A stretch of DNA of 64,000 bases from Cytophagales bacterium (GTDB taxonomy: Bacteria > Bacteroidota > Bacteroidia > Cytophagales > Bernardetiaceae): contig JAAFJX010000007.1 in NCBI GenBank assembly GCA_013299045.1, positions 62,001-126,000 on the forward strand, in the 5' to 3' direction. Position numbers and translations under genes: made by a program. This document shows positions 5,483 to 60,330 of this stretch, one piece after another (positions within the stretch are counted from its first letter, which is position 1; each line of letters opens with the position of its first letter). Under the pieces are notes generated by a model. The model searched no databases. It saw only the letters and a list, made by a program, of their open reading frames with translations, and was not told the DNA's origin.

Positions 5483-6031
5483 TGATTAAAAACCGTCTTT
5501 TCCGCAGAGCTGCGGGGTTTTTGAACGAGAGCAAGCGCTTCAATTAACCTCTCTTGAGTCGTCAAAAAGCCCTTTTTGAGTTTTTTGAGTTCCAAACGCC
5601 CTCTTTTCACCTTTGTAGAGGCCATCTTCTCGCGTTTTCAAATAACTTTTTGCCAAATGCCTCATGTCTGGCCTTTTCAATATTTCTTCTTTTTCTACAA
5701 TTCTATTGGGGCGTTCCCGCTTCGCGGTCGTTCGTCTTTGGGCTTCGCTTTGCTTCGGTGCTACGCACTAAACCCGCCGCCTCTCTAACGCCAATACAGG
5801 CCAATAGACGTACTCAATAACAAAAAAAAGAGATAAAGCCGCAAACCAGCTTGATGCCTAAAAATTGCTTTTGTCCTATTTTGCCTTAGCCCTAGCACGA
5901 CCGTATCATAGCCGTATCATAGCCGTAGTTGGCCGTACTTTAAAAATAAAGCCCCTGTCTTAGAAAAATACAATTATTCGCTTCCTAAAACTTACATCTC
6001 TCAGAGAGGTTAATTAAGAGGTTGTTTTTTT
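5483..6031 (+). repeat. Dispersed noncoding repeat, copy A (full length)
   Basis: About 550 bases that recur almost throughout at 59630-60188 and in their 5' two-thirds at 27296-27630. Order of parts: a terminator-like hairpin (CCGCAG/CTGCGG followed by a T-run, about 5500-5521); the left arm AATTAACCTCTCT (5542-5554); a T-rich segment; the GC-rich 83-nt core (5709-5791); a 3' segment with two CCGTATCATAG units (5901-5922); and the right arm AGAGAGGTTAATT (6003-6015), an exact reverse complement of the left arm. Small frames inside are not conserved between copies, so I read it as noncoding. It lies just upstream of, and in the same orientation as, the TPR gene at 6145. It could be a nonautonomous mobile element or a structured RNA. 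Confidence 0.85.
5709..5791 (+). ncRNA. GC-rich structured core of repeat copy A
   Basis: 83 bases starting GGGCGTTCCCGC and ending CTCTCTAACGC, differing from the other two cores by a single base (T for C in the GCTTCGCT run). Ends can pair (GGCGTT/AACGCC). Inside, CCGC-TTC-GCGG and GTGC-TAC-GCAC form hairpins and GGG/CCC closes a branch around the latter, so a multibranch fold is likely. Typed as ncRNA because conservation and pairing suggest RNA; transcription is not shown. Confidence 0.4.
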
Positions 6032-27295: not shown

Positions 27296-27940
27296 TTATT
27301 AAAACCGTCCTTTCCGCAGAGCTGCGTGGGTTTTTGAACGAAATCAAGCTCTTAAATTAACCTCTCTTGAGTCGTCAAAAAGCCCTTTTGAGGTTTTTGA
27401 GTTCTAATTGCCCTCTTTTCACCCTTGTAGAGGCCCTTTTCTCGCGTTTTGAAATAACTTTTTGCCAAATGCCTTATATCTAACTTTTTGACTAATGATT
27501 GTTTTTCTACAATTTATTGGGCGTTCCCGCTTCGCGGTCGTTCGTCTTTGGGCTTCGCTTCGCTTCGGTGCTACGCACTAAACCCGCCGCCTCTCTAACG
27601 CAGATACAAGCCAAAAGACGTATCTAATAGCCCAATTTTTTCCTAAATAAATCCGTTTTTTTATCTAAATTGGCTTTTTTCATCTAAACCAGCGAATGGC
27701 TTTTTCTTTGATACACTCTGATACCAAACATGATTGCACAGAAAATCTCACTCTCTAATATTTGAGCCATTCGCTTTTGTCTGATGCGAGGCATGGCAGG
27801 CCGTAAGAAGCCCTTGAGGTTTTGCCAGTTATTTGACAAAATAGGCTAAAAACTAGTAGATTTTAAAGATAAAGATATTGGTTAATCTTCTGATAATAAA
27901 TGCTTGATGTACTTTTTAAGGGACGACTAATTAAGAGCTT
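27296..27940 (+). repeat. Dispersed noncoding repeat, copy B (5' part conserved, 3' part replaced)
   Basis: 27296-27630 matches the first 60 percent of copies A and C, including the terminator-like hairpin (CCGCAGAGCTGCG), the left arm AATTAACCTCTCT and the 83-nt core at 27519-27601. After 27630 the sequence is unrelated, yet CTAATTAAGAGCTT at 27927-27940 resembles the right arm of the other copies (CTAATTAATAGCTT in C) and fits this copy's own left arm AAGCTCTTAAATTAA. The right end may therefore be preserved with a different interior. The replaced part holds an exact 11-bp inverted repeat, AGCGAATGGCT (27691-27701) and AGCCATTCGCT (27765-27775). The firm part is 27296-27630; the extension to 27940 is inference. 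Confidence 0.7.
27519..27601 (+). ncRNA. GC-rich structured core of repeat copy B
   Basis: 83 bases, identical to the core of copy C. Closing pair GCGTT/AACGC and internal hairpins as in the other copies. It is far more conserved than its flanks, which suggests selection or recent spread. Transcription not shown. Confidence 0.4.
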
Positions 27941-53562: not shown

Positions 53563-54603
53563 CTATTTCACCACCAAGTCATAGTTTTTGACGAACCACT
53601 CCTGGTCTTTCCAGGCCATGCACGAGAGCTTGTCCTCCGCGCAGTATTCTAGTGGCACTTGCGCCTCCAAATGAAAACTTTGCCGCTTTTGGCTCTCATC
53701 GTTGTAAACAAGCAACTGCGTGAAACCCTCGCCACGATAGGTATAAATTACAAAAATAGGTTTCCCTTTCATTTTGAGCAGGCGTGAGTAGCCGAAAGAA
53801 TTTTTACGCCATTTTCTATAAGTCCGTGGCGCATTGTAGTAGGTGATGCTGTCGCGTAAATCTTTTTCGGCAAATTTAATGGATTCTTTGGCTTCACCTT
53901 GCAGGTCATAGACTTCTATTTTGTTGTCAAAGGCATTCAAGATGTAGAGGTTTTCGCCCTCAAGAACCGTAGAAAAAGGCAAACCCATCATATCTACATA
54001 GCCCTCAATCAGATAGCTTGGTGCTTTGGCAAAACTCTTGACGTACTCACCTTTCTGATTAAAAATACTGATTTGCTGCATATTTTTGAAGTCTTTGGGA
54101 TTCGCCTGCTGGTTAGTAGTCGTTGCTATAAAGAATTGTTTACTGGGCGCGTGGTAATGAAAACAGCTACTTCCCTCATGAAAGGCCAAGCCAGGCGGGA
54201 GTTTAAACTTTAGCGTTCCTTTGAACTCGCCTTTAGGGCTCATATAAACCACCTGATTCAGGTAACCGTAGAGCAAAGCCATCACGTCTTCAACGAGCAG
54301 AGCTGCATCAAAATGGTTACCGGGCAGAAAATGATACCCTGCTTCGTTGGTAGCAAAATTATTGATAAGTGCGCCCTTTTTAGTGAATAAAAACACGCGC
54401 TGTATCATTACATCTGGGAAAAGTACTAAATCCTTGTAGTTGTAAACGGTACTTGCTCCACTCAAAACAAGGGAATCCGAGGTAATTTGCAGGCTATCGG
54501 TCAGTTTGAGCTCAAAAACATCTGTACTTTCTGAAACAGTGCCAGGGCTACCGCAGCCCAAAAGCAGTGCACAGAGGCATAAAAGAAGAAAATATTGGGT
54601 CAT
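53563..54603 (-). CDS. Lipoprotein, 6-bladed beta-propeller type (second of the peptide cassette)
   Basis: Function unknown. 346 residues beginning with a lipoprotein signal (MTQYFLLLCLCALLLGC, lipid-bearing Cys17). The body is made of repeated four-strand units with hydrophobic-aromatic spacing (GALINNFATNEAGYHFLPGN, YLNQVVYMSPKGEFKGTLKF, QISIFNQKGEYVKSFAKAP, YILNAFDNKIEVYDLQGEA), the look of the 6-bladed beta-propeller lipoproteins (BF3164/DUF5128 sort) of Bacteroidota. Outer-membrane or periplasmic location expected. It follows the first lipoprotein gene by 13 bases, so they are co-transcribed and perhaps form a pair. Confidence 0.7.
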   Translation of the reverse strand: MTQYFLLLCLCALLLGCGSPGTVSESTDVFELKLTDSLQITSDSLVLSGASTVYNYKDLVLFPDVMIQRVFLFTKKGALINNFATNEAGYHFLPGNHFDAALLVEDVMALLYGYLNQVVYMSPKGEFKGTLKFKLPPGLAFHEGSSCFHYHAPSKQFFIATTTNQQANPKDFKNMQQISIFNQKGEYVKSFAKAPSYLIEGYVDMMGLPFSTVLEGENLYILNAFDNKIEVYDLQGEAKESIKFAEKDLRDSITYYNAPRTYRKWRKNSFGYSRLLKMKGKPIFVIYTYRGEGFTQLLVYNDESQKRQSFHLEAQVPLEYCAEDKLSCMAWKDQEWFVKNYDLVVK

Positions 54604-54616
54604 GTCGGTTTATTTT

Positions 54617-55804
54617 TTAGCGGCTGCGGAGCTCCCAAACGTATAGCTTTTGGGGTGCTACTGGTGATAGTTGATAAATGCGGTTGTTGCGAAACACAGG
54701 AAAGGCGTATGATTCAGGAATCAAGGCTTGCTCAAAGTAAGTGTTGCTTTTTTCGTCGTAATGAACCACCATGATGTTGCGCGCTTTGCCTTCTGAATTT
54801 TTTACGTCCATATAAAACATAGTAAAGCCGCTCTCTGCATTATTGATAGAACAGTTTTGGTAGCCATTCAGCGTGTTTTCCCTCAGTTCGTAGATATACT
54901 CACTTGTTTGGGTTCTGGGCCTAATAAGTTTTTCCTTGGCTTTGTGCTCTTTTATACTATCATCAAGCACGTACTGGCTTTTAAAATAATCCAAGGATAC
55001 TTTAACAGCTGTTATCTTTCTACTTTTGTTCAGTTTATAGATATATGGCGTTTGGCAATGCGTAAAAAAAACAACTTCATTATCTGAGTCATAACGCGCT
55101 ACGATGCCCCTTCCATCTGTACGATTAAGTAAATTTGTCGCATAAGATTTTAACTCAAAAATAGGCTCTAAGTGCATATTTTTCAGATTAAACCAGCCAA
55201 GACCTGCTATTTCGTAACGCTTTTTTATCGTCTTCTTAGCAAAACGGAAAAGATACTTTTCACGCTCATACGTAACAAGTACGCGTTCATTGCATTCGTC
55301 ATAGTAATTATATACAAAAAGTCTTAAAAAAACGATACTGTTATACGTTTTGATGTAACTTTTAATTTCTTTGTCCTTTGTTTCCAAGAGCAGCCCATTT
55401 TGGTTAAAATGATACAATCTAGGCTGCGGAGAATTTGTAAATAAGTGTAATCCTTCATCAGAAAACATTGTATTGTAGTAAAGAGTATCTGGCTCATCTG
55501 TTTTAATTATCTGATTAATAATGCAGTAAGGCTCATTAATAACAGACTTACCTAAAGTATCAAAAATGATATGCTTTCCTGTGCCATACTCAGTAAAAAA
55601 AAGCATATTATCTGTAGCAAACGCCCCCCCAGTAGGAATAAATAGCTCTCTATTAATGATTGAACTTACATCAAAACTATCTACCAAAACAAAAGTGCGG
55701 TCATTGCTCCATGTTGCATCAGGTTTATATGTAATGGTTTGTTGTTTTTTGCTACAACTGGCGAATAGTGATACAATCAATGTAAAAAGAAAAAAGCGGC
55801 GCAT
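54617..55804 (-). CDS. Lipoprotein, propeller-like, first after the secreted peptide
   Basis: Not assigned to a named family with certainty. From the ATG at 55804 (MRRFFLFTLIVSLFASC) it has 395 residues; ATG 55810 adds two. Signal with lipobox FASC, Cys17. The rest is beta-rich with Tyr/Phe-rich strands (FATDNMLFFTEYGTGKHIIFDTLGKS, RLYHFNQNGLLLETKDKE, EVVFFTHCQTPYIYKLNKS), consistent with a beta-propeller; its neighbour and its C-terminal YQLSPVAPQKLYVWEL resemble DUF4221/BF3164-type proteins. It begins 107 bases after the secreted-peptide gene, with a 8-bp-stem hairpin between them, and leads into the second lipoprotein gene 13 bases on. More AT-rich than its neighbours by eye. Confidence 0.65.
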   Translation of the reverse strand: MRRFFLFTLIVSLFASCSKKQQTITYKPDATWSNDRTFVLVDSFDVSSIINRELFIPTGGAFATDNMLFFTEYGTGKHIIFDTLGKSVINEPYCIINQIIKTDEPDTLYYNTMFSDEGLHLFTNSPQPRLYHFNQNGLLLETKDKEIKSYIKTYNSIVFLRLFVYNYYDECNERVLVTYEREKYLFRFAKKTIKKRYEIAGLGWFNLKNMHLEPIFELKSYATNLLNRTDGRGIVARYDSDNEVVFFTHCQTPYIYKLNKSRKITAVKVSLDYFKSQYVLDDSIKEHKAKEKLIRPRTQTSEYIYELRENTLNGYQNCSINNAESGFTMFYMDVKNSEGKARNIMVVHYDEKSNTYFEQALIPESYAFPVFRNNRIYQLSPVAPQKLYVWELRSR

Positions 55805-55840
55805 ATCCAAAATAATTCAGTTTTTGAGGGTTGAGAATGA

Positions 55841-55911: not shown

Positions 55912-56142
55912 CTACTTTTTTGTGCCTGTACATGATATTTCTGCGCATCTTGTGCCATCAGGTTGGGTATAGTGTATCTCAACACAATTACTCCAGCCTT
56001 GTATCGGCCAACCGCCTACGTGTATAAGCTGAGACCAATTACTACTACACGGGCCTAGAGAGGCCGCATCAGCGGTTGTGCTAGCGCTCAATACTCCGAG
56101 CCCCATGAAGGCCAAAACGGCCAATACTCTTAAAGTTTTCAT
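55912..56142 (-). CDS. Small secreted cysteine-rich peptide
   Basis: 76 residues. A signal peptide (MKTLRVLAVLAFMGLGVLSA, cleavage expected after ADA near residue 26) leaves a mature peptide of about 50 residues with four Cys (32, 53, 66, 71), enough for two disulfides, and several Trp/Gly. I do not recognise a family for certain. Its size, signal, Cys content and position in front of propeller lipoprotein genes recall the NVEALA peptides of Bacteroides, which sit beside BF3164-type lipoproteins, but the NVEALA motif itself is absent. Its promoter region contains a TTTACC hexanucleotide tract (56233-56260). Export is well supported; function is not known. Confidence 0.7.
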   Translation of the reverse strand: MKTLRVLAVLAFMGLGVLSASTTADAASLGPCSSNWSQLIHVGGWPIQGWSNCVEIHYTQPDGTRCAEISCTGTKK

Positions 56143-56232
56143 TTTTCTTTGTGGAATTTAAATGTTCAAATAAACAGATAAACTTTGAGCAACAGAACCG
56201 CCCAAAAACGACCCTCCGAGAGAGTACGCCCA

Positions 56233-56270
56233 CAAAGGTAAAGGTAAAGGTAAAGGTAAAGACTGCCAAA
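56233..56270 (-). promoter_or_regulatory. Peptide-cassette promoter built on a TTTACC tandem repeat
   Basis: On the minus strand: TTTG (56267-56270), then GCAGTC, then four TTTACC units running into TTTG, so that the last unit forms TACCTTTG (56233-56240), an exact -7 element. The spacer to it is 26 bases, one repeat unit (6) longer than the ideal 20; the previous unit gives TACCTTTA with a 20-base spacer. Gain or loss of a unit would change promoter strength. Leader to the peptide start is about 86 bases. Confidence 0.55.
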
Positions 56271-56427
56271 TTTTTAGGCAACTATTTTTTTTAACGTGCG
56301 TTTGCTGCTCCTATCGCGGCTTTTGGGCAAATCTATAAGGTTTCATCGGTTTCTCGAAACCGAAGCACAAGCCCTTAATGGTCTTTCATAACGCGGTGGG
56401 CGAGCCAGCATTGTACATATTTTCTTT

Positions 56428-56459
56428 TTTGTATAAAGTGATACGATTGTTTATCTTTG
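56428..56459 (+). promoter_or_regulatory. Promoter for the rluD-like gene
   Basis: TTTG (56428-56431), 20 bases, TATCTTTG (56452-56459): near-perfect consensus. Start about 56466, leader about 98 bases. Confidence 0.7.
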
Positions 56460-59853: not shown

Positions 59854-59936
59854 GGGCGTTCCCGCTTCGCGGTCGTTCGTCTTTGGGCTTCGCTTCGCTT
59901 CGGTGCTACGCACTAAACCCGCCGCCTCTCTAACGC
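59854..59936 (+). ncRNA. GC-rich structured core of repeat copy C
   Basis: 83 bases identical to copy B. Predicted pairings: GCGTT with AACGC at the ends; CCGC (59862-59865) with GCGG (59869-59872); GGG (59885-59887) with CCC (59918-59920) enclosing GTGC (59903-59906) with GCAC (59910-59913). Strongly more GC-rich than its surroundings. Whether it is transcribed is not known. Confidence 0.4.
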
Positions 59937-60045: not shown

Positions 60046-60078
60046 CCGTATCATAGCCGTATCATAGCCGTGTCATAG
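60046..60078 (+). repeat. 11-nt tandem unit (three copies) in repeat copy C
   Basis: CCGTATCATAG twice, then CCGTGTCATAG, followed by the related CCGTAGTTGG. Copy A has two units at 5901-5922 and the same following segment. The difference in number is the main length change between the two full copies. Confidence 0.85.
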
Positions 60079-60330
60079 CCGTAGTTGGCCGTACTTTAAA
60101 AGTAAAGCCCCTATCTTAGAAAAGTACAATTATTCGCTTCCTAAAACTTGCATCTCTCAGAAAGGCTAATTAATAGCTTGTTTTTTTGAAATAATTTAAG
60201 CGTTCAAAGTAGTTTTTCAACAAAAAAAAACGATATTTGAGCCGAACTTCGCAAAGATTATTTGGTGAACCCAATTCTTGAGGTTAAAACAACTAAAATT
60301 TGTGCTCTACCACAATCCAAACAGTTTGTT

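What the first reader, a model, noticed from the sequence alone, without database searches (positions are those of the whole stretch)
56233..56270. Hexanucleotide tract between promoter elements: possible on/off switching
Four TTTACC units lie between TTTG and TACCTTTG, and the last unit itself makes the -7 element. The present spacer to the exact -7 is 26 bases, exactly one unit longer than the preferred 20; the unit before gives a near-match at 20. Unit gain or loss by slippage would retune expression of the secreted peptide and lipoproteins. Spacer-length switching is a known mechanism of phase variation in other bacteria.
Basis: partly seen in the sequence, partly recalled or inferred. Interest (0 to 1): 0.65.

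Follow-up and report, generated by a model that had tools for sequence, protein, structure and literature searches.

The report
Repeat-spaced promoter of secreted-peptide cassettes
A six-letter DNA repeat really does sit inside the promoter of a secreted-peptide operon, and sister copies in the same genome differ by whole repeat units, but nothing yet shows that it flips on and off in living cells.

Summary
In detail: on the minus strand TTTG (56267-56270) and TACCTTTG (56233-56240) are 26 bases apart, with four TTTACC units between. It is the only perfect array of period 4-9 with four or more copies in 464 kb of this genome. The genome's own upstream regions support the promoter model: TTTG/TAnnTTTG pairs peak at spacers 19-20 (21 seen, about 4 expected); spacer 26 has none. 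Three units would therefore give the canonical promoter.

The same promoter precedes seven paralogous peptide copies: 4, 4, 4 and 2 perfect units in the four with an intact leader, and a 20-base spacer in three copies lacking leader and usual start. C70a and C70b have nearly identical upstream flanks yet differ by exactly two units. A separate cassette on contig C36 has the same geometry with another unit, (TTTACG)x4.

Against fast switching: four units persist in C61 and C4a although their leaders differ at 30 of 90 positions, and four units recur in C36. I read it as a promoter whose spacer evolves by whole units; true phase variation is possible but unproven.

The parts
56267..56270 (-). 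TTTG, -33-like element (conserved in all seven TTTACC-type copies)
56237..56260 (-). (TTTACC)x4 hexanucleotide array inside the promoter spacer
   Evidence: unit number differs among paralogues
56233..56240 (-). TACCTTTG, -7-like element made by the last unit plus TTTG; spacer to TTTG is 26
   Evidence: TAnnTTTG is strand-biased 157:64 in this genome's upstream regions
56239..56246 (-). TACCTTTA, near-match at spacer 20; probably not a promoter element
   Evidence: arithmetic; TAnnTTTA not enriched
56267..56293 (-). A-rich upstream box ending in AAAAATTTG, shared by the copies (limits approximate)
56143..56228 (-). predicted 5' leader, 86 nt, conserved in the four leader-bearing copies (3-5 differences among C61, C70a, C70b; 30-33 of about 90 against C4a)
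   Evidence: start site placed from the -12 to -5 position of TAnnTTTG in F. psychrophilum, not mapped
55912..56142 (-). 76-aa peptide with signal-sequence-like N terminus; mature part differs strongly between paralogues
54617..55810 (-). lipoprotein (lipobox-like ...FASC), first gene after the peptide
53563..54603 (-). lipoprotein, probable beta-propeller (weak DUF5128 and NHL-type matches; low-confidence model matches propellers)
56428..56459 (+). TTTG-N20-TATCTTTG, canonical-looking promoter of the divergent rluD-like gene, a built-in example of the preferred spacing

Best explanation
This is the primary-sigma promoter of a lineage-specific, multi-copy cassette (secreted peptide plus beta-propeller-like lipoproteins). 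A TTTACC array fills the gap between the -33 and -7 elements, so unit number sets their distance in steps of six: 14, 20 or 26. With four units the window copy is off the preferred 20 and is probably weak, or needs help from an activator or the conserved A-rich upstream box. Units are gained and lost whole, by slippage or by recombination between copies, on the time scale of paralogue divergence rather than demonstrably within a culture. Shown: array, geometry, genome spacing preference, whole-unit differences among copies. Inferred: transcription start, promoter strength, mechanism and rate of unit change.
For: Exact geometry. Genome preference for 19-20: 21 pairs in 267 upstream regions against a background of about 2.2 per spacing, and 0 at 26; whole genome 391 pairs at 19-20 against 202 at 25-26. 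Seven copies of the promoter in the genome with 4, 4, 4, 2 units and three copies whose third unit has drifted but still gives TTTG-N20-TAnnTTTG. C70a and C70b: 112 identical upstream bases, yet 4 against 2 units. A different unit, TTTACG, in the same place upstream of another peptide cassette.
Against: No transcript start or expression data. Spacers of 26 and 14 may both be working promoters, since most TAnnTTTG sites here lack a -33 at 19-20 (34 of 140 have it). The 14 and 26 spacers differ by about one helical turn, so n=2 and n=4 could both keep an upstream factor in phase; this would make n=4 a normal state. All leader-bearing copies are off 20 and all 20-spaced copies lack the leader and the usual start codon, which the simple model does not explain.
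Confidence: 0.5

Rival explanations
1. True phase variation: slippage in the array switches each cassette between a canonical three-unit 'on' promoter and two- or four-unit 'off' forms within populations, so different cells show different peptides.
For: n is 4, 4, 4, 2 in leader-bearing copies, that is one unit either side of the optimum; spacing preference; multi-copy surface or secreted products with divergent mature parts.
Against: Four units kept in C61 and C4a with 30 of 90 leader positions changed, and in C36 with another unit: a fast switch would scatter n. Arrays are short; in four H. influenzae genomes the ten hexanucleotide repeats were mostly constant in length, one non-coding one varying between two and three units (PMC2651432, section 3.10 read).
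Confidence: 0.25
2. Fixed geometry with a regulator: TTTG-N6-(TTTACS)x4-TTTG is a regulated promoter with a long spacer; the direct repeats or the upstream box bind an activator and four units is the working state.
For: Same 38-base geometry and n=4 in C61, C70a, C4a and in C36 with a different unit; upstream box conserved in all seven copies.
Against: C70b has two units; the three leaderless copies have 20; no regulator or site identified.
Confidence: 0.17
3. Neutral leftover: the -7 element alone drives the operon, and the array is a passive by-product of slippage.
For: Most TAnnTTTG sites lack TTG at 19-20; in F. johnsoniae no -33 motif was found, as reported in a passage of PMC7366714.
Against: Array kept perfect in four loci while the leader diverged; two unit types in the same place.
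Confidence: 0.08

Closest known systems
Bacteroidota primary-sigma promoter (TTTG near -33, TAnnTTTG at -7)
   Same: Both elements present; this genome itself prefers spacers of 19-20; consensus as quoted in PMC7366714 and PMC9723704 (passages read).
   Different: Spacer 26 instead of 19-20, filled by a perfect hexamer array.
Spacer-length phase-variable promoters (e.g. Neisseria porA/opc, Haemophilus hifA/hifB; recalled, not checked here)
   Same: A short tandem repeat lies between the two promoter elements and its copy number changes their distance.
   Different: Hexamer unit, so steps of six; the last unit is itself part of the -7 element; switching not shown.
Mycoplasma gallisepticum vlhA (GAA)n promoters (PMC6258824, abstract and outline read)
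   Same: Multi-copy lipoprotein family with a repeat in a conserved promoter, different copies holding different unit numbers.
   Different: GAA repeat lies about 40 nt upstream of the start, not between the promoter elements; 12 units reported as the active state; here no activity data and fewer copies.
Bacteroides peptide plus 6-bladed propeller lipoprotein pairs (NVEALA / DUF5128; NVEALA recalled, one search found no paper)
   Same: Small signal-bearing peptide followed by propeller-like lipoprotein.
   Different: Peptides match no Pfam model and no NCBIfam model near its cut-off; DUF5128 match below cut-off (14.5 of 22.9 bits).

Membership tests
Bacteroidota primary-sigma promoter | TAnnTTTG -7 element upstream of a gene on the coding strand | tested here: met
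   TACCTTTG at 56233-56240; TAnnTTTG strand bias 157:64 in 267 upstream regions
Bacteroidota primary-sigma promoter | TTTG at the preferred distance (19-20 in this genome) | tested here: not met
   Distance 26 in the window copy; met in C4b, C21, C63
Bacteroidota primary-sigma promoter | Transcript starts about 5 nt after the element | not testable with these tools
   No transcript data
Spacer-length phase-variable promoter | Tandem repeat between the two promoter elements | tested here: met
Spacer-length phase-variable promoter | Unit number varies by whole units | tested here: met
   Only between paralogues: 4, 4, 4, 2
Spacer-length phase-variable promoter | Unit number varies at high rate within a clone | not testable with these tools
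   No reads or second strain; indirect evidence is against a very high rate
Spacer-length phase-variable promoter | Expression follows unit number | not testable with these tools
   No expression data
vlhA-type repeat-controlled lipoprotein family | Multi-copy lipoprotein genes with a shared repeat-bearing promoter of differing length | tested here: met
   Seven promoter copies, tandem cassettes at C70 and C4; works-like only, no homology claimed
vlhA-type repeat-controlled lipoprotein family | One unit number is active | not testable with these tools
   No expression data
DUF5128 (6-bladed propeller) for the 346-aa lipoprotein | Pfam score above the curated cut-off | tested here: not met
   14.5 bits, cut-off 22.9; fold search supports a propeller from a low-confidence model, pLDDT 56

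The most novel reading that the evidence does not exclude
This bacterium carries a set of hexamer-repeat promoters, with at least two unit types (TTTACC, TTTACG), that randomly retune or switch a repertoire of secreted peptides and propeller lipoproteins, the repeat unit itself doubling as the -7 element. This would be a slippage switch built on the Bacteroidota promoter; my searches of the held papers listed no such case in this phylum (listings only, not exhaustive).
Probability: 0.25. Interest if true: 0.7.

Novelty: new variant of a known kind. Interest (0 to 1): 0.42.

Why it matters
If unit number controls expression, one genome offers a ready-made series (2, 3-like and 4 units, two unit types) to test how spacer length sets promoter strength for the unusual Bacteroidota sigma factor. 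It would also show repeat slippage, rather than DNA inversion, diversifying a secreted repertoire in this phylum. Even if it never switches, it is a clear case of promoter spacing evolving in whole repeat units among paralogues.

Tried and rejected
Relatives for strain comparison: the 451-base region matched well only in the own genome; the weak hits in G009, G011 and G019 are short A-rich leader stretches, not arrays. The lipoprotein profile A1 gave seven rows in the own genome (five genes, two fragments) and two weak rows in 2 of 38 other genomes, and nothing in genome contigs, where the own genome may be left out. The peptide profile found seven own copies; an eighth own row at C36:46080 (E 0.146) has no array, leader or signal sequence around it and was rejected. 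Rows of that search in other genomes (E 0.06-0.97) were taken as chance and not read.

Phylum scan of 395 genomes was badly designed: its gap of 4-10 cannot match a four-unit array, and it missed the own genome, so it only speaks about three-unit forms. The repair was (order, 194 genomes including the own): 5 of 193 others matched, none with three identical units. One search (39 genomes, own included) found one other genome, G010, with three identical units (TTTATT) in a T-rich tract; it is not among the matches, which required TTTG in place. Genome-contig scan for the array: 4 hits, all in other phyla, taken as chance and not read further. IMG/VR: 0.

RNA-level explanation: no Rfam match; the leader folds no better than shuffles (z -0.57). 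Terminator-like hairpin TGCC...GGCA at the upstream box: not kept in C4a, C21 or C63, rejected. Promoters inside the leader: no other TAnnTTTG between array and start in the four copies.

Other own-genome matches to TTTANNTTTANNTTTG (C32, C39, C40, C48, two more on C61) were read and are not repeat arrays between promoter elements. The orphan lipoprotein on C50 has neither array nor peptide.

Full report
What is there. On the minus strand, upstream of a 76-aa peptide gene (55912-56142), TTTG (56267-56270) is followed by GCAGTC, four perfect TTTACC units (56237-56260) and TTTG; the last unit and TTTG make TACCTTTG (56233-56240). TRF finds 4.7 copies without error. In 464 kb of this genome no other perfect array of period 4-9 reaches four copies. 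Two lipoprotein genes follow the peptide (54617-55810, 53563-54603). The second looks like a beta-propeller: weak DUF5128 and NHL-type matches, and a low-confidence model (pLDDT 56) that still ranks Bacteroides propeller lipoproteins among its best matches.

Is it a promoter? I asked the genome itself. In 267 intergenic stretches upstream of ORFs of 120 codons or more (window plus 400 kb from two contigs), TAnnTTTG occurs 157 times on the coding strand and 64 times on the other. TTTG-N-TAnnTTTG pairs number 10 and 11 at spacers 19 and 20 against a mean of about 2.2 elsewhere (Poisson p about 7e-9); spacer 26 has none and 14 has three. Spacer 25, it should be said, has six. With TTG the figures are 17 and 18 against 3.7, and 0 at 26. 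Genome-wide, without regard to genes, there are 391 pairs at 19-20 and 202 at 25-26. TAnnTTTA is not strand-biased (63 and 66) and shows no peak at 19-20, so the near-match at 20 is unlikely to serve. The divergent rluD-like gene has a textbook TTTG-N20-TATCTTTG at 56428-56459. A caution: only 34 of 140 TAnnTTTG sites with enough upstream sequence carry TTG at 19-20 (8 of 56 on the reverse strand), so a missing -33 does not equal silence.

Natural variants. The promoter exists in seven copies. Four have the leader and start codon: C61 (the window), C70a and C4a with four units, C70b with two. Three (C4b, C21, C63) lack the leader and the usual start. In C4b and C21 two perfect units are followed by a drifted third (TTTAGT or TTTATT) and TTTG; C63 has TTTACC, TTTGCC, TTTATT, TTTG. 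All three have a spacer of exactly 20. Their reading frames are open but begin only inside the signal sequence, so they may be dead, or read from short-leader mRNAs; I cannot tell. C70a and C70b are tandem neighbours with 112 identical bases upstream, 2 differences in 150, 5 of 91 in the leader, and four against two units. C4a and C21 share their upstream flank (1 difference in 125) but have different cores, so recombination between copies also reshuffles this joint. Mature peptides differ far more than the leader and signal sequence.

A second unit type. A search for TTTANN arrays found contig C36: TTTG GATACG (TTTACG)x4 TTTG, again with a 26-base spacer, before two tandem signal-bearing peptides (about 121 and 119 aa), a 376-410-aa protein and a small further gene. 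One peptide has a weak, sub-threshold match to DUF6520. Either the two promoters are old relatives in which the unit was replaced throughout, which needs repeat turnover, or the design arose twice. Among 193 other genomes of the order no promoter-placed array with three identical TTTANN units was found.

How it probably works. Unit number fixes the -33 to -7 distance at 14, 20 or 26. Three units would be canonical. Four and two are off by one unit either way. I favour a weak or assisted promoter whose spacing changes in whole units over evolutionary time. Fast on/off switching would fit n scattered around the optimum, but four units are kept in C61 and C4a although 30 of 90 leader positions differ, and recur in C36. 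A regulator that needs the 26-base geometry remains possible; 14 and 26 differ by roughly one helical turn.

Compared with what is known. The promoter type is the standard Bacteroidota one (consensus quoted in passages of PMC7366714 and PMC9723704). Spacer-length switching is known from Neisseria and Haemophilus (recalled). The vlhA family of M. gallisepticum (PMC6258824, abstract and outline) is the nearest in logic: many lipoprotein copies, one repeat-bearing promoter, differing unit numbers; but its repeat lies upstream, not between the elements. NadA spacing (PMC2791445) was seen only in a search listing. Paper searches with Bacteroidetes or Flavobacterium, or with hexanucleotide repeats, plus phase variation gave nothing on this arrangement in the rows listed: 15 of 49, 3 of 3 and 3 of 3.

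Limits. No reads, strain series or transcripts. A short-read assembly error behind the two units of C70b cannot be excluded.

Noticed in passing
L067/L068 = G000:C36:65609-65646 (+): Second hexamer-array promoter, unit TTTACG x4, spacer 26, before two tandem secreted peptides and a larger gene.
   Followed up: partly
G000:C4:23270-23301, C21:1063-1094, C63 near 49190 (-): Three cassette copies with a canonical 20-base spacer but no leader and no usual start codon; frames stay open from inside the signal sequence.
   Followed up: partly
G000:C70:220311-220554: Remnants (profile positions 2-52 and 309-345) of a propeller lipoprotein just upstream of C70a, a sign of deletion between tandem cassettes.
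   Followed up: no
window 5901-5927 and 60046-60083: Two tandem arrays of the same 11-base unit CCGTATCATAG, 54 kb apart.
   Followed up: no
window 27552-27567 and 59887-59902: Same GCTTC pentamer array (3.2 copies) at two places.
   Followed up: no
L018 2476-4892: Two neighbouring OmpA-type proteins with nearly identical C-terminal parts and different N-terminal parts, downstream of the leaderless peptide copy C63.
   Followed up: no
G000:C9:72660, 76488, 78475, 103202; C15:8876; C27:170, 3719, 7706: The same promoter string TTTGCAGAATGAAATTAGTTTTGTATTTTTG repeated many times, probably a mobile element's own promoter.
   Followed up: no
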